DNA of 64,000 nucleotides, taken from Fistulifera solaris. Lineage: Eukaryota > Bacillariophyta > Bacillariophyceae > Naviculales > Stauroneidaceae. Location: positions 310,001 through 374,000 of the forward strand of contig AP026126.1 of NCBI GenBank assembly GCA_030295235.1, given 5' to 3'. Within the stretch, counting starts at the first letter, position 1. Each line of letters begins with the position of its first letter. Under the pieces are notes generated by a model, which was not told where the DNA came from, did no database searches, and saw nothing but the letters and a program-made list of their open reading frames with translations. Shown piece after piece: positions 15,091-57,428 of this stretch. A program made the position numbers and the translations under genes.

Positions 15091-17278
15091 ATGGCTTTTC
15101 AATTAAGTCTCCGCCGCGGACTCGTCAGCTCTCCGTCGATGCTTCGTCCTTCGTACATCCAACCCACCAGCGTGCTCGGACAATCCATTCGAAGGTGGCA
15201 ATCCGCAGGTCCCGATGCCGGTGATGTGATCGGTATTGATTTAGGAACGACCAACTCTTGCGTGGCAATCATGGTAAGAATGAATCAGTAGACGACTCGA
15301 TGTTTCCATCCTCGCCTCTGTCACTCAATTGTCGCTCTCTTTTCACGACTCGAAGGAAGGCCGCAATCCCCGTGTGATTGAAAACTCCGAAGGTGCTCGC
15401 ACTACTCCGTCCGTGGTGGCGTTTACCAACAACAACGAGCGCTTGGTGGGTATGGCGGCGCGCCGACAGGCGGTGACGAACCCCGAGAATACACTCTACG
15501 CCGTCAAACGTCTCATCGGACGTCGCTTCGAAGACAAGGAAGTCAAAAATATTGCCGGACTCGTTCCTTACAAGATTGTCAAGAGTGACAACAATGAAGA
15601 TGCTTGGGTGGAAGCGCAGGGCAAAAAGTACAGTCCTAGTCAAATCGGGTCCATGGTGTTGACGAAAATGAAAGAAACCGCGGAAGGCTTTTTGGGACGC
15701 ACCGTCACCAAGGCCGTGGTCACCGTCCCGGCCTATTTCAACGATAGTCAGCGTCAAGCGACGAAAGATGCCGGAAAAATTGCGGGCTTGGATGTTTTGC
15801 GTATTATCAATGAACCCACAGCGGCCTCACTCGCGTATGGCCTCGACAAGGCGGACGGAAAGACCATTGTCGTCTTTGATTTGGGTGGTGGTACATTTGA
15901 TGTCTCGGTTTTGGAAATTCAGGGCGGTGTCTTTGAAGTGAAAGCAACCAACGGAGATACCATGTTGGGTGGAGAGGACTTTGATGAAGAATTACTGGAG
16001 CACCTGTTGCGCGAGTTCAAGAAGGACAGTGGCATTGATTTAAGCAAGGACAAACTGGCCATGCAACGATTACGTGAAGCCGCCGAAAAAGCCAAGCGTG
16101 AACTCGATGGTTTGGCACAAACGGATGTTTCGTTACCCTTCATCACTGCTGACGCCACTGGACCCAAGCATTTGAACATTAAACTTACGCGTGCTCAATT
16201 TGAACAAATGGTGCAAAAACTCGTTGACCGTGTCATTGATCCCTGCAAGGTGAGTGGAATATAGTGTGCTGTTATTGAGCTAGTCATGTTTTCTAATGTG
16301 ACGGATACTTATCATTTTACTTTACACTCTCGATTCAACAGAACTGCATGAAAGATGCCGACATTTCGAAGAGTGACCTGCATGAAGTCATCCTTGTTGG
16401 TGGTATGACACGAATGCCAAAGGTGCAAGACACCGTCGCTGACTTTTTTGGCAAAAAGCCGTCTCGAGGAGTGAACCCCGATGAAGTTGTAGCCATGGGT
16501 GCCGCCATCCAGGGTGGTGTTCTCAAGGGTGATGTGAAGGATATTCTGCTTTTGGATGTTACTCCCCTATCTTTGGGTTTGGAAACACTTGGTGGCGTCA
16601 TGACAAAGCTTATTCCCCGAAATACAACTATCCCGACGAAAAAACAACAGACATTCAGTACTGCCACCGACAACCAGCCACAGGTACAAATCAAAGTGCT
16701 ACAAGGTGAACGTGAGATGGCTGCTGACAACAAGATGCTTGGAAACTTTGATTTGGTGGGTCTCCCACCAGCGCCTCGTGGTGTTCCCCAAATCGAGGTG
16801 TCGTTCGATATCGATGCCGATGGTATTTTGAACGTGAGTGCCAAGGATAAGGGAACGGGTAAACAACAAAGCATTGTAATTCGTAGTAGCGGTGGTTTGT
16901 CGGAAGCCGAAATTGAAAAGATGGTTCAAGATGCGGAAGCTAATGCCGAAGCGGACGCCCGACGCCGCAAAACTATTGAAACACGCAACGAGATGGATTC
17001 TCTTATTTATTCAACGGAAAAGAGTTTGACCGAGAACGCCGAGAAGATTGATGCCGATACCAAGGCCGAAATTGAAAAGGCCATCGCGGAGGCGAAGGAG
17101 GTCAAGGACAGTGACGACTTGGATGCATTGACTGCTAAGAAGGACGTTCTAAACCAGGCCAGTCTAAAGATTGGACAAGCCATTTACGGACAGCAATCAC
17201 AAGGTAATACCGAGGAGAAAGACGATAACACAGTCGATGCTGATTTCAAGGAGAAAGAGAAGAAAAGACGACAAGTAA
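15091..17278 (+). CDS. Mitochondrial HSP70 (DnaK type)
   Basis: Matrix chaperone that drives import and folding. A Ser/Arg-rich presequence (about 45 aa) precedes '[16 protein letters not shown]', the phosphate-1 loop. Exons are 15091-15273, 15356-16249 and 16342-17278; the introns (82 and 92 nt) are GT-AG and in phase. '[20 protein letters not shown]', '[12 protein letters not shown]' and '[15 protein letters not shown]' mark the ATPase domain, followed by the peptide-binding domain and lid. The frame as written runs on to 17379, but the tail is un-HSP70-like. Dropping one A from 17263-17266 gives an ending 'KEKEKKDDK' with a stop at 17276-17278, as expected for the acidic/basic DnaK tail. 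The lack of an EEVD end rules out the cytosolic form. Confidence 0.93.
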
Positions 17279-17484
17279 TTCCAATGCCTTCGCGTACGCC
17301 ATCTGGCCAATATTGTCTTATTCGTGCTATTCTTGGAATGTTGATGGGCGTTGGTGAATATAGTAGAGAAATTTATTAGAAAAGCTGCTTGTAGGACCTC
17401 CTTTGTGACCATTGTGTCTAGTTTCTTCTACAACACTAAAGTCGCTTTTATTTGTAGACATGTACGATTAGAATAAGTACCTTT

Positions 17485-31000: not shown

Positions 31001-33215
31001 ATGTGGTAGAGTCAAGCTCAACTTGATCCTTCGCAAAATCGCTTAGAATCAAGACTTCACTGCCTCCCTTCACAGCCGCAACTGCAGCGTCACACACCTG
31101 ATCAAGAGCCTTTTGTAGTCCCGATGGTCCATCACTAAGTGCGTAGCGCGTCGAGACAGTGGTTTGCTGGAAACTACCGTTCTCGGGTTTGCTCATTTCG
31201 GCGATACGTTCCATTTCGGCGGCATTCAAAATAGGTGACTCCAAATGAATCAATCGTGCACCCTTTTCTGAGACCTTGTAAATTGACTCTTTCTTGCCGA
31301 GCGTCATCGCCAACGACATGACAACACCCTCACGCAACGGATCAATCGGTGGGTTGGTTACCTGGGCGAAACGTTGTTTGAAGTAATTGTAGAGAGGCTG
31401 TGGGCGTTCCGAGAGGACAGCAATCGGTGCATCGTCTCCCATAGAATAAGTCGTCTCTTTGCAGCACCCGCCATGTCAGCAATCTGCATTCCGATATCTT
31501 CGAGCGACCAACCGAACGATCCTTGGGCAAAAGTCGCCGTAGAGTCATCGTAAAGGCGTTCGTCCGGAGCGTCCATCTTATTGACATCTTTGCGTTGTCT
31601 CGCGATCCATTCACCGTAAGGATGACCTGTAAAGACTTCATTTTTAGAAACAATCCAATCATCGATTATTGTGTAATGTGACTCGATCTTTTGTACTTAC
31701 GACTAGCGATTTCGCTCTTGATTTGAATATTGTCTTTAAAAGCTCCCGTCGACAAATCAACATTGATCATCTGGCCTGGTCCAAGACGACCTTTTTCAAC
31801 AATCTCAGATTCCTCCAAACCAGGAATCACACCCGTTTCACTCATCATGTAAACAGTTCCATCATTGCCAATGCTGTATCGGGCCGGTCGAAGTCCATTA
31901 CGATCAAGTGATGCACCAATCGATTTGCCATCCGAAAAGACCAAAAGAGCAGGTCCATCCCACGGTTCCAGGAGTCCTCCATGGAATTTGTAAAAATCGG
32001 TAATTTCGGGATGATCAGCTAGGTCGGGATTGTTCACGTAAGCAGTCGGAACCATGGCCATGAGTGCGCATGGGGCACGGTGTCGTGACTTGCACATGAG
32101 CTCAAAGACGGAATCCAAGTTGGCCGAGTCCGAACGTCCCAAATCAACAACGGGCTCGAGTACCGATGGAATATCTTGCGTGTTGCACATGGTCACAATA
32201 TTCATCGTGTTATCAAAGTCGACCAAATCGTCGGTATTTTCGATCGTACTGATGGCTTTAGACGCTTCTCGTGCTTTGATCCAGTTGACGTTCCCCAATA
32301 AAGTATTGATCTCACCGTTGTGACCCACCACACGCATGGGCTGAGCCAAAGGCCAGCGGGGACTGGTATTGGTGGAGTAACGGCGATGGTAAATGACGAA
32401 CTTGGAAGTATAATCCGGATTGGTCAAGTCCTTGTAAAATTGCGGTAAGATCGCCGATTGCACCATGGCCTTGTAGACAATAGTACGTGAACTGAACGAG
32501 GCCACGTAGGTCTCACTTCCTTCTTCATTGTTCCATACCAATCCTTGCTTGGCGAGTTGCACTCCGAATCGTCGTCGCACCAGATAGAGGGTTCGTTCAA
32601 ACCCATCACGATCCTTATCGTCTTCGAGTCGCTTGGGCGGCTGGACGAAGAATTGCCAAATACTCGGACGAGCCTGGTAGGCCAACTCACCCAAGACGGA
32701 ATTATCGACCGGAACTTCTCTCCAACCCAAAAATTGGAGTTCGTTGGCTTGACAGACATCTTCAATGAGATCTTTGACCGCCTTGCGACGCATGGCATTG
32801 CGGGGCAAAAGATCATTCCGACGCCCGGTTCCGGACATTCGTCGGTCGTAAACTCTTCAAAAAGTTTCCACGGTATCCCCGTCATGACACCGGCACCATC
32901 GCCAGAGACGCCGTCTCCACCACAAGCCCCACGATGTTCCATGCATCCAAGGGCACTGAGACCTTGTGTGAGAACTTTGTGCGAACCGAATGGACCACCT
33001 TCTTTCACATTGGCCACAAAACCGACACCACAAGCGTCGCGTTCTTGAACGAGTGGTGCTGGGCCATCAAACATGTTGGTAAGTTGATCTTTCGGCCAAG
33101 CCATGGAAAGACTTACTTTGCTACTCATTGAAGGAGGAGTAGGAGGAGAAAAAAGAAAAGCCATGGCGACTGGAGCCGCCAGAATGGCGAAAACGACCAA
33201 CCGTCGGCACGACAT
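28046..33215 (-). CDS. GLSF: Plastid glutamate synthase (ferredoxin-type GOGAT)
   Basis: Makes two glutamates from glutamine and 2-oxoglutarate in the plastid. Start '[20 protein letters not shown]' (33215) is a signal peptide ending AMA|F, the diatom plastid rule. '[10 protein letters not shown]' holds the glutaminase Cys, '[19 protein letters not shown]' and 'SNSGEGGED' belong to the FMN domain, and '[12 protein letters not shown]' carries the 3Fe-4S cysteines (Cx5Cx4C). The beta-helix tail includes '[16 protein letters not shown]'. Exons are 33215-31701, 31626-29776 and 29692-28046; introns are 74 and 83 nt. Three one-base losses interrupt it: A run 32807-32810, TTT 31458-31460 and T run 30767-30770. 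About 1,670 aa without a fused NADH-binding beta subunit, which points to the ferredoxin enzyme. Confidence 0.95.
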
Positions 33216-36045: not shown

Positions 36046-39000
36046 ATGTGGCGCACCACGAGGTTCATTTCGTGGATCTTGTTGTTACTGCTTCCCACCG
36101 TTCATAGTTTCAACATGATGCGTCCTTTGATCACACGAACACTGCGAAATACCTCCCATCGACGAGTCTGTACAAGGATCTTTTCGACGTTACCACATGA
36201 AACGGTGACCACGGAAGAATTGTTTCACAATAAGCCATGGGTAGAATTATCCAAACAACCAGCGATTGAATTCTCGAATACGAATGAAGATGCCCTACAA
36301 ATAAACACTAAGCCCAAAGAAGGAGGAAATTGGAATCCAGAAAATCCGTTGCAATGGGCGCGTGATTTTGGTCGACGTTCTGCCGAACGCACCGCTGCCT
36401 TACAGAGTCGTATCCGTCTCCAACCGGGAGACGAAGGATATTTTGACGTGAATCACATTCGCATACCTCATGTCACCATTGTTCGCAATCGACAAGATGC
36501 GCGCATTGTAACGGCCAAATTGATGGAAGCGACCGATATCTTTCATGCGTGTGATACAGAAGTCATGGACATTGACCTCAAAACGGTGGGGCCCGTGGGC
36601 AATGGATACGTCACGTGTGTCAGTATTTATTCGGGACCCGATTTTGATTATGGTCTCGGAGATGGACCCGGTTCTTGTTTGTGGATTGATAATCTCGATG
36701 ATGCGTGCGGTGTCTTACAAGAATTCAAAGAATGGTTCGAGGATGAACGCTTCCTCAAAGTGTGGCACAATTATGGCTTTGATCGCCACGTCATGTGGAA
36801 TGAAGGAATTGACGTAAAAGGCTTTGGTGGCGATACCATGCACATGGCGCGCCTCGAAAATACAGCACGCAGTCGCATCAGTATGACGGGCGGAACTGAA
36901 ATGAATGGCTACAGTTTGGAAGCGCTGACGGCCTCGCTCTTGAATCGTCGCAAACAGCCCATGAAGGAGATTTTTGGAGTCAAACGATTACGAAAAGATG
37001 GGAGTGAAGGAAGTATTATCGATATTCCACCGGTCGAAGTCATGCAGCGCGATCCTCGATTTCGGTCACGGTGGATTCTTTATTCCTCCTATGATGCGGT
37101 GGGGACCTATAAACTTCGAGAAGTGTTGGAGGAACGATTGAAGAAGAGGAAATGGTTATCGGATTCAGACAACATGTACGATTATTACTTTATGCACATG
37201 AGACCCTTCGGAGAAGTACTCACCGACATGGAACGACGAGGAATACGTGTGGATGCCCGCGATTACTTGGCCAAAGCCGAACAAAATGCCCGGGCCGATA
37301 GAGAGCGGCACTCCAGGATATTTCGAGAATGGGCGGCCACAAAAATTGGTGTCGATGGTTTAGCCATTAACACAGCTAGCTCGTTGCAGCTATGCACTTT
37401 CTTGTTTGGAGGCGCTCTTAACGAGAAAACAAATGAATTCACTGAATCGGTTCGAGTATTCAAAGTTCCTCGGGAGGAAATCCCGGAAGATGCGCTCGAG
37501 GCGATTGAAAATCGTGATAGAAAGGATGATGACGAAGATCAAAATAATGATCTTGATTACCTTGAGCAAATGAAAGCGACTCAACTCAAGGCTCTATGCA
37601 AAGAGAGAGGCTTGAAATTATCAGGGAAGAAAGCAGAATTGATTGAACGCTTGAAAGCCTTTTTTATACATGATAGTCAGAGAGTTGATAGATTAGTAAA
37701 CGCTGACGAATTCGACGAAATGACCGACAAGGATCTTCAAGATGTTTTGATTGCTCGAGGGCAAGGGAAAGTAACAGGCACAAGGGATGAATTACTGAAA
37801 AGAATACGGCAAGATGTTGAGTTTACGAACCAAATACTAGAAGCGTCAACTGGTCTGGATGCAGACGGAATGCCGGAAATAGCAAAAGTAATGGAAGATT
37901 TGGCAAGAAAAGACGGCGGCGCGCTCGCTGAGGCACTGGAAGAGCTGAGATTGAAGTCCTCTACACCACCAAAGAACATTGACATAACAATCAAGGGCTT
38001 GGGCCTTAAGATTGAAAAAATACACTGCAGGTAATTCTCCCAGCGTAACAGCCGATGTAATAGGAAAACTTGCAGGGGATCCGTTCGCCGACCCACCGAA
38101 ATATGGCTCGGTAAGCATGTCGCATGGGGAAATAGATTGTAATCAACAAGTTACTTATTTCGTTTTTTCAGGCATTTGAAAAACTGGGAAAAGAGGGCTG
38201 CGAAGCTCTCGCGAGTCTCGCTGCTATTGGTTCTATCGACACAATGATAGCCAACTTCTTCACAAGTTTACAAGAGCTTGTTGACGACCAAAGTCGCGTC
38301 CATTGCTCGTTAAATTTAAATACAGAAACAGGTCGACTATCTTCGCGGAGACCCAATCTTCAAAATCAACCTGCCTTGGAGAAGGATAAATACAAGATTC
38401 GAAAGGCATTTCAGGCTAGTCCAGGAAACAACTTGATCGTGGCTGATTATGGTCAGCTTGAATTGCGTCTATTGGCTAGTTTGACAGAGTGTACTTCTAT
38501 GATCGAGGCTTTTAAAGCAGGAGGTGACTTTCATTCTCGAACGGCGCTAGATATGTTCCCTTATATACAAGAGAAAGTGAAATCTGGAGAGGTTATCTTG
38601 GAATGGGATTATGCTGACGGCGAGCCAACCAAACCGCTAGTGAAGGATTTGTACGCTTCTGAGAGGCGGAAAGCGAAAACGCTTAACTTTTCCATTGCTT
38701 ATGGCAAAACCGCGCATGGTCTGAGTCAGGATTGGGGTGTGTCGAAAGAAGAAGCTGAGGAGATGCTAAAAGCCTGGTACAAAGCTCGACCTGAAGTCGA
38801 AAAGTGGCAAAAAGCGACACAAGAGCATGCGAAGCGTTTCGGAGAGACACGAACCTTGATGGGGCGATACCGTGATCTGCCTCATGCAATGAAGGGCTCA
38901 GCGCCTAAATTCCTCGGTCACGCTATGAGGGCCAGTATCAATACGCCTATCCAAGGTGGTGCCGCTGACGTAGCTATGATGGCAATGATTAAAATCAACA

Positions 39001-39212
39001 ATAGCCCCAAACTCAAGAAACTCGGTTGGATTTTGCTGCTACAAATCCACGACGAAGTCATATTAGAAGGCCCTGAGGAGACCGCCGAAGAAGCGTTCCA
39101 AGAGGTTCTCGATTGTATGCAAAATCCTTGGGTATATGGACTGAAGAAGACCAGTGTACCGCTCGAGGTAGATGGCTCATACAATCACAAAACATGGTAT
39201 GATGCGAAATAA
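36046..39212 (+). CDS. POP: Plant/protist organellar DNA polymerase (family A) with SAP-like segments
   Basis: Replicates plastid and/or mitochondrial DNA. The start chosen (ATG 36046) gives a signal peptide 'ISWILLLLLPTVHSF' followed by an Arg/Thr-rich transit-like stretch, so the plastid is likely. A DnaQ-type 3'-5' exonuclease starts near residue 165 ('CDTEVMDID'). Residues about 505-590 hold two SAP-like units ('LKALCKERGLKLSGKKAELI', 'LQDVLIARGQGKVTGTRDEL'). The polymerase domain has motif A 'VADYGQLELRLLASL', motif B 'RRKAKTLNFSIAYGKTAHGL' and motif C 'LLLQIHDEVILEGP'. The A run 38015-38020 carries one base too many; with it removed, exon 1 ends in phase at 38110. A 61-nt intron (38111-38171) precedes exon 2. 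There is no 5'-3' exonuclease, as usual for POPs. Confidence 0.92.
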
Positions 39213-39438: not shown

Positions 39439-39556
39439 AAAGAACAACACCCGGGATTCCAACGTGGTCCCCCACCGTAGTACTAACCGGGCCTGACGAT
39501 GCTTAACTTCGCTGAGCAGACGGGAAGCGGTGCTGTCATCGTAGTATGGTCGTTCC
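39439..39556 (-). rRNA. 5S ribosomal RNA gene
   Basis: On the minus strand the sequence starts GGAACGACCATACTACGATG. It has the internal control region resembling AGTTAAGCATCGTCAGGCC, then GGTTAGTACTACGGTGGGGG (the universal GGTTAGTACT-GGTGGG block), and ends CCCGGGTGTTGTTC before a TTTT run that would stop RNA polymerase III. The 5' GAACGAC can pair with the 3' GTTGTTC to close helix I. About 116-118 nt, as expected. It lies alone, 227 bp past the polymerase gene on the opposite strand, not in an rDNA array within this window. Ends are good to a base or two. Confidence 0.9.
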
Positions 39557-39791
39557 TACTTGTTGACGGAAATTTTATTTTAATTATTTATTGTTTTGAC
39601 AGACGCAATGTCATTATTTTCGTCGAACATGATGCCAACAACGGAGACATCGGAACGAAATTTTGGCCTCGAGACCAAAGTTCCAATTGTGTGTTGTTTT
39701 CTTCGCCTTGGAAGATAGATTTGCGAAAATGGGTTTACGGTCTGCGCAAAAAAAAAACGAACAAGACAATATTTGCCAGAGGTAATTTCGG

Positions 39792-41572: not shown

Positions 41573-44500
41573 TTATGCATCTTGTTCTTTCCAAAGTCTG
41601 CGGGTTCTGTTGCGCCTGGCGTTTTTAAACAACAGGCTTTCTGTGAAGAGGGCACTGAAAATCCCTCCCGTGGTTGAGTTTCGGTTCAGTAGGCAATAAT
41701 CAAGTTCACTTTGCGTGGTTAAACCCATCCACAGAGCGACACCGTTCCAAAAGGCATCCCAGCTGGTAGTTGGAATGAACCTGCCTCGACCGATATTGAG
41801 TGACCCTTTATCGGTAAGATCAGGAGGATATTTCCCAAAAACCTTTCAGCCGTTTACATCGCCCCCAAGGAACATGTAATTGCCACCCCATCCATGATCA
41901 CTTCCTCCACCGGTGTTTGGCGTTAATGTTCGTCCGAACTCAGAGGCGACGACAATTGTAACATCATCCCAAACACCTTGTAAATTTAGTTCTTCGACCA
42001 TCCAACCCAACCCTTCATTGACGTGCGTCAAGCCTCGCTCTAAGGAAGATTTTAAAGAAGAGTGATGATCCCAACCATCCATTTGAACATAGAAAACATC
42101 GCGATCTACTCCACGTGAGCTTCTAGCCTTGATAAGCTTCGAGATCATGCTTAATTGATAGCCATGCGTCTCGAGCTCCCACTCATTTCTGGGCCAATGT
42201 GCACCCAAGGACACATTTTCAATTTGGCTCTGCAAAAGCTCAGCAGCACGAACACCACTGATAAATTCCTTCGACCATGTTTGGCCGAAGAGGGAGTTGT
42301 GCTCAGATGGCAATCCATTGAGCTCCTCTGCATATGAAAGCAGATCGAGGGTTTCAGGTTCAGGTTTTACGTCAAACTTATTCACCCCAAGACGACTGAC
42401 TATTTTGGGCTTAGGATTCTTGTCTTTAGCAGCGTCAACAGCTATGGATGCCTTGTCAATCGCCACTGATCCAGTCTTATAATCCTTTGTCTGCAAGACA
42501 GAACTGAGTCGACCCAAAACTCCTGTTCCCTCATTAAATGATTTAGGGTCAATTGTTTTTGTCTCCCGTGTCATCCAATTGTGGGCAAACAGCTGTACCT
42601 TTGTTTTTTCGAGATAGGTATTTTTATCCAGTCCTGTAGTATTGTCAAGTACACCCATATTCGCAACAAAAGCCAAATCACCATCTTTGTAAAGAGTGTG
42701 AAAGAGTGTTAAACTCTTGTGTAAAGCGAACGTTTGGCATGGTTGGTTTGTTGCGCTGATGAGCAAAGACCGTTCAGCGTTGCCAATAGCGAGATAATCT
42801 CGTTCTGACATATACTGCTTGTCAGTTGTAACACCTTGAGCGTTCTTCCCAGAACAAAACATGCGGAATAAGCACGTTAAATGAGTCTAGTCCGCTGTCA
42901 AGCATCAGCAAAATGACGGCTTTATACGGTTTTGCGTTTGTATCCATGGTGGCGTCGGGAGGTCTGCCACCTCCTCTGTTCTCGGTTATCCCAGTCGCAT
43001 GAAATTCGGGTGTCATCAATATCAACTGACCAACATTTAAAAAGCCCTCGGTTCGACTCACGGCCAAGTCGTAGACTTCTCGCAAAAGAGTCCCCTTGGT
43101 CTTGCTCATTCGGCCCGCAGTAAGCAAAAGAGACATTTCGTCAACAACTTGCAACGAATCATACGAATCGTTGGGCATGTATGCGAGATATCCCATTGTG
43201 TTGCTGTATGTGCCTTTCGTTACACCAAGATCTTTGCCGTATCCAAAGCCACCGTATTCAGAATCTAAACCATATTTTAGAAGACTGTTCAGTCCGTTTA
43301 CGAGTGATACAACGGTTGGTGCACTCATAGCCTGACATTCTGGACAAGTGAGCTTAGCGTCACCGATGGGCCCTAGAAATGAAATAAAGGTTAGATATCT
43401 CCAGAGCAACTCTAATGTCACAACCAATGTGCTTACCAGAAGGAGAATATTCAGGTAGGAAAAGGAAAAGACGCTTGGGAGCTTATGAGCTTGTTGCCCT
43501 ACCAGATCTTGAAGGGGCTGGGCAAACCGAATGAAGGGTGAATCCTCTCCGGGACGAAATTCCATGGATCGCATGACCCTTACTATTCTCAGAAAAGGCT
43601 CATAAAGGCTCCCGTGGGTAGGATCAAATTCCAAAAGCTGGGCTCGCGACTCCCGATCAAGTAATATTGCAGAGATCATTGCAAGCAAATCACCGTATTC
43701 GCCGCTTCCAAGTGTGTCTTCACCGTCTGTATAGATACCTGTTCTAAATGCCGTAGCAGCAACTTCAATCGCCCGGTGAGACGGATTGGATACACCAAAG
43801 CGTTGAAAGAGTCTTATGGCAAGAAACGGTGCAGTGCTTGGGTGGTACTATAGTCACAGAATAACCGTGAGATTTGAATCGAGTAAAGACACGACAAAGT
43901 CAAAGAGACTTACGAAGTATTGATCCAATCCTGCTTCTGTCTTGTATATAGCGTCGCGTAACTCGGGCAGCACTAACGGCATGAAATGAGAGGGATTTTG
44001 AAACTTAAGTGAGCGAGTCCCAACATGCACCATTGACCGGATGTTTCTTCGCCGCTGAATAATGCCATTGTTATCGATGACTTCAAAAATCGATTCTATG
44101 GAATAAAGCCCGTCTGGTGAAAACATTATAATTCCTCCTCCAAGATCAAGTCGTTGATAAGCGTCATCGAGTATGTCCGGAGAAAAAGCCCCAATTTTCA
44201 AATCCTTCAGCACCTCTTCTTTTGTAGGAGCCTGACTAAATACTAATTCGTCGACAAGGTTTGCATTGCATAAACAGAAATCGTCGTACTCATCCCTAGA
44301 ACAACCATTTTCCCTACACCGCACATCATATGAATCCAAGAATGATCCCAGTGATCCTTCCCAATCTACCCTGAAAAATGTTTTCGTATCTTCGTTGACA
44401 TTATAGAAAATGTCTTCTTTGTCGATTACTGGATCGGCGGCGTTAGAGACACTGTGAACTATGCCCACATTTCCATGAAGGTTAATTTTTACTTTCAGCG

Positions 44501-47500
44501 CACAAGCGTGTGTCCCCCAATAAGGAAGCTTTTCGTCGCAATCGTCGCAAGTCCACCAAGGGATTCGGCAAAGGTTCAAGTTATTCTCTTCGCAACGAGA
44601 TTCAGCGCTAGCAAATGACATCCTTTCTCCAGGGAAATGGACGTATGAGTTGACATTTGCAAAGTCATTACTTCCATTACAGCACGCCACTGACCCAACC
44701 TGCGTTCGTGGATCACCGCAAAAGAAATAGTGCCATTGTATTCTCATCATGGCTGGCTCATAGAATGCCTGCTCAACGCATGGTAATCTTGTGTATTCAT
44801 AATATACGTTTTCGTCAACTTGAATAACCCTTGGCGACTCAATCCTGCATTCGTTTCCTACACAGCCTATATTGTTGTGCAAAACAACTATACCTGGATA
44901 TTGACAGTTCTCTAGACTATCTTTGGAGCACAGAATTGAGTACAATTCGGAATTTGTTGTGTCTAGGACAAGCCTCTTCTTTTCGATATCGTCTGCCCAA
45001 CTTTCCGGCTCCATTAGTAGGCGTGGCTTGGGATGGGATCCCAACAAACGATAGGTAGCGCCTTTCTTCAGAAAGTGCTGGGCCGGCAAATCTGCGCACA
45101 AGGGATAGCCATCTCCCACGTATGTATTGAATAAGCCCATCTGAAGAAAGATTAGTTGTTGATTGAAAGCGACGAAAAAGAGTACAGGATAGACACTCAC
45201 CTTTGGAAGACTATCGCGTGCTAGGCTATCGATCATCATAGGGTCAAGCAAATTCCCCTTCCATTTTGACCAATCTTCCGTATTTCCGCGTTTCGGTTGC
45301 TGACGAAAGCCTGTCCACAATTGAGCAAGCTCAGTGACTTCATCGTTGGTGTACGTCGGAACAGGATTGCCATCATCATTCTTTTGCCATCTGCCATCTA
45401 TTTCAAGAGATAACAGCCCTGTAGACATCAGCTGCATCAGCTCGCGAGAAAAGTTCTCATCAGGCCACTGGATGCGTCCTTCCGTTTCAAAGACATAGTT
45501 TGTGGATGCGCTATTCAAGTAAGTCAACATTTCAGCCATGAGAGGGCTGTAAGCCACTTCCTTCAAGATAGCACAATAATTACCAAACGCATGTCTGACA
45601 AAGATATCGTAGAAAACCTACAAAGCCAAAAGTAAGTGAGAGTATTTTTCGGATGACCACCATCTACCACTTCTTTGTCATCTCACCAAAAAATTCTCTG
45701 TCATGTAATAAGCTTCAATGGCTGCTGGAGAAACTGCAAATATCTGGCTCAGAGCCCACGCCACCCTCTGGCGTAACTGATCCTCGCCAAAGAGAGCGGA
45801 GTGCATCCAAATCATCGTCCGCTGATGTTCCATATCTTCTTGGAGCGTCGTCCAGCTGTACTGCGTCGCAGCATTGAATGCTCCCTGGTAAAGGCTGCCA
45901 TGATGCGTCGGGTCATTGGCAACCTCGTACGGACTACCGCACACCAAATTTGACCCCACAGTAGTGGATGGCAGCAAATGCCGGAAAGCATCACCAGCTG
46001 CTGGGTTGGTGGCTATAAGAATTGTATCGCCTAGAGTACCGAGGTCCACCACATGCTCCCAGTTGGTATAGAAGCGACGCATTTCATGTGATGCAGGAAA
46101 TACAAGAGCGTGCGTTTGTGCCACGGCAAACTGCTGAATGGCATTCTCTCCGCCTGGATGGATTGTGACCCATTTTGTAAAATCAAAGACCTCAAATTCC
46201 CACGGATGAACGTTTTTCCAGCAATTACCATCCACTTGTATTTTATAATCGAAAGAATTGAGATCAGCTGCATTGCAGCTTGTGCCTAAAACGGGAAAAT
46301 TGGTATCTATGACACCTTCGGCATTGCTTCTTGCCGCGGCTGCTTTACGAATGAGATTTTCGAAAATTCCACGCGTTGTGGTACCTAATGAGTTCGAACA
46401 ATCGGTCGTCACAATCTTCTTCCAGCGAGAGCGGCTCCCTGGAGCACACGGAGCGTCAATGTTACTATCAGACTGTCTAAGCCCCTGAATGGAATAAACG
46501 TATCGTCGGGTCTCTGCCTCGTAAGCACCTCGTAAATTGTTTAAGTTCAGTTCAACCAACAAATCGGAATCATATTGAACCAAAGAGCATTCAGATGGCG
46601 CTATCCTACAAGTATCCTCATTCAAAAAGGTTGCAGGAGCACTCGAGCATTTCACTCAGTAGACTTCATCTCGTATATTCTGGGTAGCTTGCACGGCACT
46701 GAATGCTTCGTTGGGACTTTCTAAATCGTTGTTTTCAAGGACGCATGAAATATGCCCCATCAAAAAAGTCCCAAAGTGGTTGTTTCCGGATTTCCTGTTA
46801 AGGTTGGTAATTCCAAACACAATGGATCAGATAGCTTCGTATGAACATACAAATCTTGTTCAACTTCAGGATGATATTGTGTGTCAACTGCGATAGCATT
46901 TCCCGTTAAATCAAGCACAACAATGTCGGACAGATTTTCGAGAGGCAGCACTTCCGGGTTTCCTACAAAAACACCATCCAACAACAAATCCCCACATTCT
47001 CCGTTATGATACAAGCGGAAGAAACCTCCAATGTACCCTTCCACACGCTCGCAAACGAAATATCTATCGCCGAGTTTTATGAGAACAATGAAAAGAAGCA
47101 AGGATTATCACTTTCAGAGCACTTACTTTCCGTCAGGGAGCCGTAAATGATTCTGTACGGATCCAATATGAACAGACTGCGCATTCACAACAGTGCGAAA
47201 CTGATTCATTACCCAAAACGATTTTTGCGTGCCACTGATTGTGCAAATTTCAACCTCGGCTTGCCAATCCTTGTCGGTAAAAGCGTATTTTTGGTAACGC
47301 GTCCCTGTTTCGCAAGGATGTGTCACTCGCCCTTGATACGACGTGTGAGGATATCGATGATTTAAAAATTCTCTGTAGATAGCGCGATGAGAAGTCACTG
47401 GTACATCAACCTGGTTCCGTATCCAAGACGAAAAATTTGTACCGACGGACCGTATTTCATCAATTTTGGGCCCGAACGTTGCTTGTTCTAAAAAACGCGC

Positions 47501-47966
47501 CGTTTTATCCACTCGATCACTTGATGCCGGTACGGACACGAGTCTATAGCTTCCTTTCAAGCCAATTGATGTGCAATAGTTACTTTCACAACTAAACCTA
47601 GGCGCATTATTGGCGTCGTAGTATGGTTCCCAATCATGCCCTTCATAGCTACGAGCAATGGGTTTTCCATCCTTCCACAAAATACATAAGCCTGTACTTA
47701 TTGCAAATTCTGTCAAAGAGTCCACTTGTACCTTCACGGTTAACCCATCCAAACATGCCGCAATGAGATCAGGCTCTTGTGATAGCATGCCGGATGGCGC
47801 TTCGGATGGAGCTTGTGTTGGTGCCTTTGTCTTCACCGTCTTGGGAGGTCGTTGTTTGAAGCGTATACTTCGAAATAAGAGACATTGTTCACACGTGCTT
47901 TCGTCAGAATTTGCGATAGACACAAGAGAAATAAGGAAATAGATTGACAAAGACTGACTTCATCAT
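41573..47966 (-). CDS. Secreted DUF1800-DUF1501 fusion protein with cytochrome b5-like and lectin-like segments
   Basis: A very large protein (about 1,960 aa). A signal peptide ('LSIYFLISLVSIANS', ATG 47966) and a Thr/Pro stretch precede the DUF1800 start ('ARFLEQATFGPKIDEI'). A cytochrome b5-like block ('VFDFTKWVTIHPGG') interrupts it. DUF1800 resumes with 'RQRVAWALSQIFAVSP' and 'ENFSRELMQLMSTGLLSLE', is split by a Cys-rich lectin-like insert ('FASAESRCEENNLNLCR'), and ends 'HPSTAPFLAIRLFQRF' and 'LPEYSPSGPIGDAKL'. DUF1501 follows: 'AVILLMLDSGLDSFNVLIPH', 'IVVASEFGRTLTPNTGGGSD', 'IPTTSWDAFWNGVALWMG'. Introns: 47064-47126, 45618-45686, 45141-45200, 43848-43913, 43373-43436. One-base errors at 47949-47951, 46762-46767, 43460-43463 and 42856-42859. 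Two in-frame TGA codons remain (46656-46658, 41846-41848). Confidence 0.8.
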
Positions 47967-48769: not shown

Positions 48770-50223
48770 CTAAAGTCTGGGTTCCTTTAAGGCTGATAAT
48801 TCTTCCTCTTCTTCTTCATAACTAAGGAGAACCTCAGGCATGATGGACGAATGATGGTGGGAAATCTTCCAGTCACTATCTTCGTAACAGTAGACGAACG
48901 AATACCTAGCGCGAATCTTCGTCTCACCACCATCGAGAGTAAAGCTGTAGACGCCAAAATCCAAAGCCCAATTGGTTCCAAGGACAATATCGCCGCTTTC
49001 AATCGTACATTGGGGCCCACGCTTCAAAAACATCTCAAAGTAATCGCAAATAAGCTGGTTGGTGGCACGGGGAGCATCCGATAGAGTCGGAAGATAAACG
49101 GCGTTTTTGGCATAGCGAGAAGCAACTATGCTCGCATCTCCCGTCGCCAACGCATCATTCCATTCCTGAAACCAGCTTCTGACTTGCTGCTGAGTTATAG
49201 GCTGTGCTACAACAATACTTTCCGGCATCATGGAATCATGATGGTGAGCGATTCTCCACTGGCCTCCTTCGAATGTGTAAAGAAATGAAAATCGGCAGCG
49301 GATCCTTTCTCTCTTATTCTGCATGGTAAGTTCGTACATTCCGATGTGCTTGGCCCAATTAGAGCCTACTTGAACAAAAGAATCTTGAAGTTTTGCTACC
49401 GGAGCTCGTTTCAGAAAGGTTTTATAGTAGTCCTGAATAGCATCTCGAGAATTGCGTGGTATATCCGAGTCCACGGGAAACACGACCGCATTGCAAGTGT
49501 ACAAATCTGCCATGACTTTCGGGTCCAGACTCACGAGCGCCCTTTGCCAAAACTGAAATAAATCACGCACCTGGCTCTCGGTAATGGGCTGATTGAAACT
49601 AACCGATTCGGGACGGACGGAAGAATGCTGATGTTGAATTTTCCACTGACCATTTTCTTGTGCATAAAGAAAGGAGTATCGAGCCTCGACCATCGTTCCC
49701 TCCTCTGCCAAAGTTAATTCATAGATACCCCTATATTGAAAAAGCAAGCGGTGGAATCCCAAAATCCCAAGAGTGAGGACCCTTTGAAATCTTTGCCGAG
49801 CGAACAACTCCAAACTTACGAATCTTGTGCCCAGCCTTTTCCTATTCTTAATTGACTTTTGATTTGAAATACTTGCGGTCGCTTTCTTAGAAAATTGTCG
49901 TAATACGCTCGAATACTATCCCAATCCATCCGAGGAATATCCGAATCGACCGGGAACAAAACGGCATCTTCGGCGTAGCGAGCGGTAACGATCCGCGCAT
50001 CACCCGTCGCCAACGCATCGTTCCATAAAAGAAACAGGGCTCGAATTTCCGCCTGTACTACCGCATCTCCATCGTATTTTCGGGGACGCTGGAAGAGATT
50101 CAAGGCCGTGGAGTGGGCGATTCGTACGGAATGATGAAACGCGGCGGCCGGATACACCAGTCTCGCGAGAAAAAGGATGCGGAGAAAACAATAGCTATAC
50201 GAATAGTAAAATCGATGACTCAT
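48770..50223 (-). CDS. Plastid-targeted protein with three SnoaL/CaMKII-association-like repeats
   Basis: Two exons, 50223-49820 and 49730-48770, with an 89-nt GT-AG intron that joins in phase ('DSGIYELT'). The N-terminus is a signal peptide ending PAAA|F ('FLARLVYPAAAFHHSVRI'), fitting the diatom plastid route. Three repeats of about 130 aa follow. Each opens with a W-containing helix ('LFLLWNDALATGDARIV', 'LFQFWQRALVSLDPKVM', 'WFQEWNDALATGDASIV') and closes with a Tyr/Phe strand and a His-Ser or His-Asp ending ('GQWKIQHQHSS', 'GQWRIAHHHDS', 'SDWKISHHHSS'). This is the cystatin-like alpha+beta barrel of SnoaL, DUF4440 and CaMKII-AD domains. The function is unknown; such domains bind small ligands or multimerise. 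The tail is Glu-rich. No base error was needed. Confidence 0.7.
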
Positions 50224-57355: not shown

Positions 57356-57428
57356 GGTGGATTAGCTCAGTTGGTAGAGCATCGGATTCCAGTCCCGAAG
57401 GTCGCCGGTTCAAGTCTGGTATCCATCA
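57356..57428 (+). tRNA. tRNA-Trp (CCA)
   Basis: A 73-nt cloverleaf: acceptor GGTGGAT/ATCCATC plus discriminator A, D arm GCTCAGTTGGTAGAGC, and anticodon loop TTCCAGT giving CCA. The T arm is GCCGG/TTCAAGT/CTGGT with two G-T pairs. The A box (TAGCTCAGTTGG) and B box (GGTTCAAGTCT) are intact, and a TTTTT terminator follows directly. There is no intron. The last pair of the anticodon stem is A-C, a small weakness. Confidence 0.93.

What the first reader, a model, noticed from the sequence alone, without database searches (positions are those of the whole stretch)
41573..47966. Single-gene fusion of DUF1800 and DUF1501, secreted
In many bacteria a DUF1800 gene sits directly beside a DUF1501 gene. 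Here both are in one intron-containing eukaryotic gene behind a signal peptide, in that order. The fusion supports a physical or functional partnership for these two poorly understood families and suggests capture of a bacterial operon followed by fusion and intron gain.
Basis: partly seen in the sequence, partly recalled or inferred. Interest (0 to 1): 0.8.

Follow-up and report, generated by a model that had tools for sequence, protein, structure and literature searches.

The report
Fused DUF1800–DUF1501 protist protein family
Two poorly understood bacterial partner proteins, normally made from neighbouring genes, are welded into one large, probably secreted protein in this alga; the weld is old and shared with many other protists, and the copy in this window looks like a decaying member of the family.

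Summary
The fusion is real: PF08811 (DUF1800) then PF07394 (DUF1501) in one intron-containing minus-strand gene, 47966-41573. All 18 DUF1501 places found in the genome have DUF1800 just upstream. It is not local: 114 of 120 and 119 of 120 listed relatives carry both families, named from diatoms, other ochrophytes and an apusomonad. Eukaryotic rows form one side of a branch, apart from bacteria, in trees of each half and of both. Their DUF1800 carries an insert of about 375 aa (211 of 215) and often a second of about 450 aa (130 of 215); none of 78 bacterial proteins does. In 14 bacterial genomes, 32 of 32 DUF1800 genes have DUF1501 directly downstream. Best mechanism, inferred: a secreted, glycan-binding, metal-dependent phospho- or sulfo-ester hydrolase with DUF1800 as built-in partner. 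No structure could be predicted and no donor identified.

The parts
47127..47966 (-). Exon 1: ATG at 47966 (out of frame with the rest as assembled), signal-peptide-like stretch from 47959, first segment of DUF1800 (ARFLEQATFGP at 47500-47468)
47064..47126 (-). Intron 1 (63 nt, GTAAGT..TAG)
45687..47063 (-). Exon 2: insert 1 of DUF1800 (about 455 aa, with a weak cytochrome-b5-like HPGG stretch at 46160-46140), then the DUF1800 segment FNAATQYSW..DQLRQRVAWALSQI. Reading frame lost near 46768 (one T more than L041) and 46743 (14 nt fewer than L041)
45618..45686 (-). Intron 2 (69 nt, GTGAGA..TAG)
45201..45617 (-). Exon 3: DUF1800 core (FVRHAFGNY, PDENFSRELMQL)
45141..45200 (-). Intron 3 (60 nt, GTGAGT..CAG)
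43914..45140 (-). Exon 4: mostly insert 2 of DUF1800 (the homologous part of P0055 holds many invariant cysteines)
43848..43913 (-). Intron 4 (66 nt, GTAAGT..TAG)
43437..43847 (-). Exon 5: part of the last DUF1800 segment (YHPSTAPFLAIRL..); apparent frameshift near 43463 in a T run
43373..43436 (-). Intron 5 (64 nt, GTAAGC..TAG)
41573..43372 (-). Exon 6: end of DUF1800, joint (about 42990-42920), DUF1501, stop codon 41575-41573. Apparent frameshift near 42859 and TGA at 41848-41846
41576..42935 (-). DUF1501 domain (start approximate) with the conserved putative metal residues D (in DSGLDSFN), H (LFAHNWM 42592-42572), D and H (MDGWDHH 42082-42062), D and H (GSDHGWGGN 41905-41879)

Best explanation
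The gene belongs to a eukaryotic family that arose when the two cistrons of a bacterial DUF1800-DUF1501 operon became one gene, once, before the split of the protist groups sampled here (shown: order, fusion, one group in both half trees; inferred: direction of transfer and single event). The protein works as one secreted or cell-surface enzyme: DUF1501 is a metal-dependent hydrolase of the alkaline-phosphatase/phosphodiesterase/sulfatase type acting on phosphate or sulfate esters of extracellular glycans; DUF1800, enlarged by eukaryotic inserts, is its obligate structural or substrate-handling partner; lectin-like accessory domains in some members bring it to glycans (all inferred). In this genome the family has 9 loci, each as a duplicate pair; the window copy is a member under relaxed constraint, probably dying.
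For: 18 of 18 DUF1501 places have DUF1800 places just upstream on the same strand, by coordinates; joint unbroken in 12 of 18. 114 of 120 and 119 of 120 listed relatives carry both families; 15 of those listed bear transcript-type names (MMETSP/CAMPEP, TRINITY, comp_seq), so assembled transcripts span the joint in other species. Half trees and joint tree put eukaryotes on one side: 38 rows, SH-aLRT 100; 38 rows, 99; 41 rows, 100. Insert 2 in 211 of 215 listed relatives, insert 1 in 130 of 215, both in 18 of 18 genome copies, 0 of 78 bacterial with any. Operon order in bacteria. The D, H, D, H, D, H set holds in 40-41 of 41 eukaryotic and 79 of 79 bacterial DUF1501 rows. Superfamily: Phosphodiest (PF01663) in 5 of 21 members and Sulfatase in 2 of 21 at E up to 0.1; one Fragilaria gene model passes the Phosphodiest cut-off (32.1 against 23 bits); profile match to ENPP4 at E 0.12. 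Lectin-like domains: of 45 same-strand genes within 400 nt downstream of the bacterial pair, 20 have F5/8 type C, 7 PA14, 6 GLEYA, 2 CBM_4_9; some eukaryotic fusions carry F5/8C, PA14, CBM6, CBM35 and others, in P0287 and P0296 with F5/8C between DUF1800 and DUF1501. Purifying selection: dN/dS 0.056-0.161 over 9 duplicate pairs. Window copy: 63 against 29 amino-acid changes versus its duplicate (p 0.0005), 22 against 24 at 4-fold sites.
Against: No activity for either family was found, no catalytic nucleophile was identified, PDB sequence searches gave nothing significant and no fold could be predicted. Most superfamily matches are weak. The glycan link is by association only; 25 of 45 downstream genes lack F5/8C, only 2 of 24 upstream genes have it, and F5/8C and PA14 domains also bind other ligands (recalled). 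Insert 1 is not detected in 85 of 215. One other pair also shows unequal rates (L030/L037, p 0.0076), and 17 of 18 copies have some break as assembled, so the window copy's breaks alone do not prove decay. Support for the eukaryotic clade is 94 when outgroups are added. All trees are quick trees without bootstrap.
Confidence: 0.6

Rival explanations
1. The fusion is a recent event of this alga: two adjacent bacterial genes were taken up and merged in its own lineage.
For: Seven of the nine loci are clustered in the first 165 kb of two paired contigs (C36, C37), which would suit a recent expansion.
Against: Fused relatives in diatoms, Triparma, Pteridomonas, Chrysophaeum, Paraphysomonas and Thecamonas; the genome's copies lie inside the group of diatom rows.
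Confidence: 0.03
2. Fusion happened more than once, or in a bacterium before transfer, and protists exchanged the gene among themselves.
For: The eukaryotic part of the tree does not follow accepted relationships neatly: Thecamonas sits inside a starred group with unnamed metagenome and transcript rows. Some fused proteins lie on 430-548 kb metagenome contigs of unknown origin (P0264, P0268). Insert 1 is not seen in 85 of 215 relatives.
Against: Insert 2 at the same model position in 211 of 215 favours one origin of the fused form. None of 79 bacterial loci is fused.
Confidence: 0.3
3. The window gene is intact; all its breaks are assembly errors and it makes the full fused protein.
For: Several breaks lie in homopolymers. 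17 of 18 family copies show at least one apparent break. A glutamate synthase in the same window is split between overlapping frames. The pair's dN/dS is still 0.161.
Against: A 14-nt gap against L041, a 4-nt difference just after the start codons, a TGA, and an excess of amino-acid changes at equal synonymous change, including G to S in the GGxD motif, where all 40 other eukaryotic and 79 of 79 bacterial rows have G.
Confidence: 0.25
4. DUF1800-DUF1501 is a structural or secretion module with no hydrolase activity.
For: The passages read give no biochemistry: DUF1501 is called uncharacterised (PMC4452313) and both families are tied to chitin-synthase operons by position only (PMC5122149).
Against: Putative metal-site residues are near-invariant across bacteria and eukaryotes; one member passes the Phosphodiest cut-off.
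Confidence: 0.3

Closest known systems
Bacterial DUF1800-DUF1501 gene pair (PF08811/PF07394; in chitin-synthase operons in PMC5122149)
   Same: Same two families, same order, same strand, directly adjacent; same putative metal residues; lectin-like domains in 20 of 45 downstream genes
   Different: Bacterial proteins are separate (0 of 79 loci fused) and DUF1800 has no large insert (0 of 78); here one polypeptide with inserts and introns
Alkaline-phosphatase-type phosphodiesterases and sulfatases (PF01663, PF00884; ENPP4)
   Same: Mostly weak profile matches, ENPP4 over about 40 positions; one member above the PF01663 cut-off
   Different: No significant match to a solved structure, nucleophile not identified, fold not tested
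Unpaired bacterial DUF1501 (the high-scoring kind)
   Same: Same Pfam family
   Different: Not beside DUF1800 (34 of 66 DUF1501 places unpaired); the six rows used form their own group, support 100

Membership tests
DUF1501 (PF07394) | Match above Pfam's cut-off (27 bits) | tested here: met
   90.3 bits in the window copy; 18 of 18 genome places over cut-off
DUF1501 (PF07394) | Conserved D, H, D-x-H, D-H residues of bacterial members | tested here: met
   Present in the window copy, in 40-41 of 41 eukaryotic rows and 79 of 79 bacterial rows
DUF1800 (PF08811) | Match above Pfam's cut-off (26.1 bits) | tested here: met
   56.8 and 45.1 bits in two window frames
DUF1800 (PF08811) | One continuous domain as in bacteria (not part of Pfam's definition) | tested here: not met
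   Interrupted by two inserts in 18 of 18 genome copies
Bacterial DUF1800-DUF1501 pair | DUF1800 then DUF1501, same strand, adjacent | tested here: met
   bacterial order
Bacterial DUF1800-DUF1501 pair | Two separate cistrons | tested here: not met
   One exon crosses the joint
Alkaline phosphatase superfamily | Significant profile match | tested here: inconclusive
   PF01663 best E 0.00048, 5 of 21, and PF00884 best E 0.0056, 2 of 21; P0148 above the PF01663 cut-off, 32.1 against 23 bits; PDB ENPP4 E 0.12, none with the bacterial profile
Alkaline phosphatase superfamily | Superfamily fold with two-metal site and nucleophile | not testable with these tools
   Structure prediction accepted no job
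Sulfatase (PF00884) | Formylglycine motif C/S-x-P-x-R (recalled) | not tested
   -

The most novel reading that the evidence does not exclude
A bacterial three-gene surface glycan module (DUF1800, DUF1501, F5/8C or PA14 protein) was captured once by an early protist lineage and fused into one giant secreted enzyme, which was kept and expanded across stramenopiles and other groups as an unrecognised class of glycan-ester hydrolase; DUF1800 is the obligate second half of the DUF1501 active unit.
Probability: 0.3. Interest if true: 0.78.

Novelty: new variant of a known kind. Interest (0 to 1): 0.58.

Why it matters
No function for either family turned up in the passages read. A natural fusion that keeps the operon order, with near-invariant putative metal residues and recurrent lectin-like partners, is a Rosetta-stone argument that the two act as one unit, and it offers a single protein to express and assay. 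It also marks an old, large, probably secreted protein family of diatoms and other protists; no paper naming it was found (searches, 94 of an open-licence library; listings and passages seen, not full texts).

Tried and rejected
A gene restricted to this genome: rejected. Bacterial contamination of the contig: rejected, because introns interrupt the gene and a neighbour is an MCM gene. Two separate genes: rejected, because one exon crosses the joint. Unfused eukaryotic DUF1501: the DUF1501-only search lists many frames with PF07394 alone, five with a eukaryotic name or transcript label. Of these P0215 and P0168 begin in the tail of DUF1800, so they are truncated fusions, and P0148, P0203 and P0191 begin inside DUF1501, so they are truncated models; the unnamed ones were not examined. 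A giant-virus origin was considered because of P0264 and P0268 on long metagenome contigs: a scan of viral contigs with P0264 found no relative; a scan with profile A1 gave 13 loci at 23-44% identity, not followed up. Donor search: not resolved. The best 79 bacterial loci favour in-frame adjacent pairs because one tblastn match spans both genes, so 78 of 79 is biased; the count over 14 whole genomes is less so, though those genomes were chosen because they hold a pair.

Gene models come from my own alignment scripts, not from a published predictor. For divergent copies some frameshift calls can be alignment artefacts, and a 39-49-nt 'intron' near query position 331-334 in several copies, the window's included, was judged spurious. 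Dropped rows: trees used rows within set length limits, so 63 of 78 bacterial DUF1800 rows were used and every second of 63 bacteria with both halves (32); P0020 fell out of the DUF1501 and joint trees. In some searches P0013 was labelled Staurosira; it is Stauroneis constricta by taxid. P0306 is read as Hemistasia from its 'Hpha' prefix, and P0278/P0287 as choanoflagellate-style names, both from recall only.

Full report
What is there. Pfam finds DUF1800 in two frames (E 2.8e-15 and 1.1e-11) and DUF1501 in another (E 1.9e-25), each above its cut-off. Homology to sister copies places five GT-AG introns of 60-69 nt. The end of DUF1800 and the start of DUF1501 are in the same frame and exon, 43025-42876.

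The genome. The window is part of a 51.7 Mb, 61-contig assembly. Each of the 18 family copies has a counterpart on a paired contig at 84-92% nucleotide identity: seven loci on C36/C37, one on C9/C10, one on C5/C6. [quoted passage not shown] the identification is inference.

A gene family. The 18 DUF1501 places each lie just downstream of DUF1800 places (40 exon-wise matches, 39 over cut-off). The L036 model runs from DUF1800 to DUF1501 with no stop. By alignment to it the joint is free of introns, stops and frameshifts in 12 of 18 copies, itself included.

The window copy. Against L036 it has three apparent frameshifts and a TGA. Against its duplicate L041 on C5 it differs by 4 nt just after the start codons, has one T more near 46768, lacks 14 nt near 46743, and has other single-base length differences. 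But 17 of 18 copies show at least one apparent break, L041 has five, and a glutamate synthase in the same window is split between overlapping frames, so the assembly looks error-prone. Rate evidence does not rest on indels: the window copy has 63 lineage-specific amino-acid changes against 29 in L041 (p 0.0005), with 22 against 24 at 4-fold sites. Of 454 positions invariant in the other 16 copies (at least 14 present) it departs at 15 unshared with L041, the TGA among them, and L041 at 3 unshared; the eight other pairs are more even. One of those eight is unequal in overall amino-acid rate (L030/L037, 10 against 27, p 0.0076). The pair's dN/dS is 0.161, highest of nine (range 0.056-0.161). I read the window copy as recently relaxed and probably dying.

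Relatives. A search with the fused region of L036 gave 259 proteins; of the 120 listed, 114 carry both families, named among others from Nitzschia, Fragilaria, Seminavis, Epithemia, Pseudo-nitzschia, Coscinodiscus, Ditylum, Thalassionema, Stauroneis, Cyclotella and Thalassiosira. A search with P0120 gave 184 from a capped candidate list; of 120 listed, 119 carry both, adding Paraphysomonas, Pteridomonas, Triparma, Chrysophaeum and Thecamonas trahens (lineages). Fifteen listed proteins have transcript-style names. A search with the DUF1501 part alone gave 1442 proteins, best 120 listed, many with PF07394 only; the five with a eukaryotic name or transcript label are truncated, two of them starting in the DUF1800 tail.

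Architecture. A profile of bacterial DUF1800 (A4) matches the 18 genome copies in three pieces separated by about 450 and 375 aa. Among 215 listed relatives the second insert is detected in 211 and the first in 130; of 78 bacterial proteins none has an insert of 200 aa or more. Of the four relatives without insert 2, P0055, P0045 and P0118 begin at or inside that insert; P0083 was not examined. So DUF1800 begins near ARFLEQATFGP in exon 1, and the protein is nearly all DUF1800 with inserts plus DUF1501. Insert 1 holds a weak cytochrome-b5-like stretch (E 0.00093, below cut-off; 1 of 21 members of A1 at E 5.2e-05).

Trees. With 38 eukaryotic and 79 bacterial DUF1501 rows the eukaryotes are one side of a branch, SH-aLRT 100; with 38 and 63 DUF1800 rows, 99; jointly, 41 and 32 rows, 100. 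All are quick trees without bootstrap, and unnamed metagenome rows were labelled eukaryotic beforehand. With six unpaired DUF1501 as outgroup the eukaryotes remain one group (94), while unity of the paired bacteria has support 6, so the donor is open.

Bacterial context. In the best 79 loci 78 have DUF1800 0-59 nt before DUF1501 and none is fused (biased towards in-frame pairs; the 79th, L084, starts at a contig edge). In 14 whole genomes 32 of 32 DUF1800 places have DUF1501 downstream on the same strand, and 32 of 66 DUF1501 places are paired. Of 138 nearest flanking frames, 69 were on the same strand within 400 nt: 45 downstream, 24 upstream. Of the 45, 20 have F5/8 type C, 12 a Por secretion tail, 7 PA14 and 6 GLEYA; of the 24, 2 have F5/8C. 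Four long bacterial DUF1800 proteins were scanned: one has PA14, GLEYA and PKD domains, one CHRD and an H-type lectin, two TSP3 repeats. Of three eukaryotic fusions with long linkers, P0287 and P0296 have F5/8C between DUF1800 and DUF1501; P0285 has DUF7402 there and a sub-threshold F5/8C match.

Mechanism. Six D/H residues of DUF1501 are near-invariant in 41 eukaryotic and 79 bacterial rows. Mostly weak matches point to phosphodiesterases and sulfatases, one above cut-off (P0148 to PF01663). With a signal-like N-terminus and lectin-like domains the best guess is a glycan phospho- or sulfo-ester hydrolase with DUF1800 as built-in partner. This is inference; PDB sequence searches were negative or not significant and no structure could be predicted.

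Literature. DUF1501 and DUF1800 together: 2 papers; DUF1501: 10; DUF1800: 4; accession numbers: 2; COG numbers: 2 (COG5267 as DUF1800 is recalled). Passages read: PMC5122149 proposes a functional link of DUF1800, DUF1501 and chitin synthase in bacterial operons; PMC6653060 names both in a table; PMC7563939 lists DUF1800 (2 of 10) among domains enriched in up-regulated genes of Emiliania huxleyi; PMC3597751; PMC4452313 calls DUF1501 uncharacterised; PMC4960237; PMC6946804 names both COGs as uncharacterised proteins among abundant SAR202 categories; PMC6329079 lists DUF1501 beside a glycosyltransferase gene. None of these passages mentions a fusion; full texts were not read.

Noticed in passing
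window 31666-33215 (-): Glutamate synthase GATase_2 domain is split between two overlapping frames (profile 1-98 and 78-415): an indel error or a real frameshift in a housekeeping gene.
   Followed up: partly
window 15452-17379 (+): HSP70 split into two frames (profile 49-314 and 317-598); an intron or a break.
   Followed up: partly
G000 contigs C36 and C37, first 165 kb: Seven fused DUF1800-DUF1501 loci clustered on each of two paired contigs, in both orientations.
   Followed up: partly
window 48770-49693 (-): Neighbouring gene with SnoaL-like and CaMKII-association-type domains.
   Followed up: no
window 36046-39212 (+): DNA polymerase A family gene with exonuclease and SAP domains, in two frames.
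   Followed up: no
window 39439-39557 (-) and 57356-57428 (+): A 5S rRNA gene about 2 kb from the family gene, and a tRNA gene (Rfam matches).
   Followed up: no
P0264, P0268: Fused proteins of about 1415 aa predicted as one frame on metagenome contigs of 430 and 548 kb; organism unknown.
   Followed up: partly
L123-L135: Thirteen contigs of a viral collection encode DUF1501 relatives, some matching over the DUF1800 part too; possibly misassigned bacterial contigs.
   Followed up: no
P0303: The Thecamonas gene model joins a protein kinase to the fused protein; may be a gene-model error.
   Followed up: no
window 46160-46080 (-): Cytochrome-b5-like HPGG and a second histidine motif inside insert 1; could be a haem-binding domain in a secreted protein.
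   Followed up: no
L030 and L031, query position 1492: Two neighbouring paralogues on C36 show the same apparent one-base frame change at the start of DUF1501, absent from their C37 counterparts.
   Followed up: no
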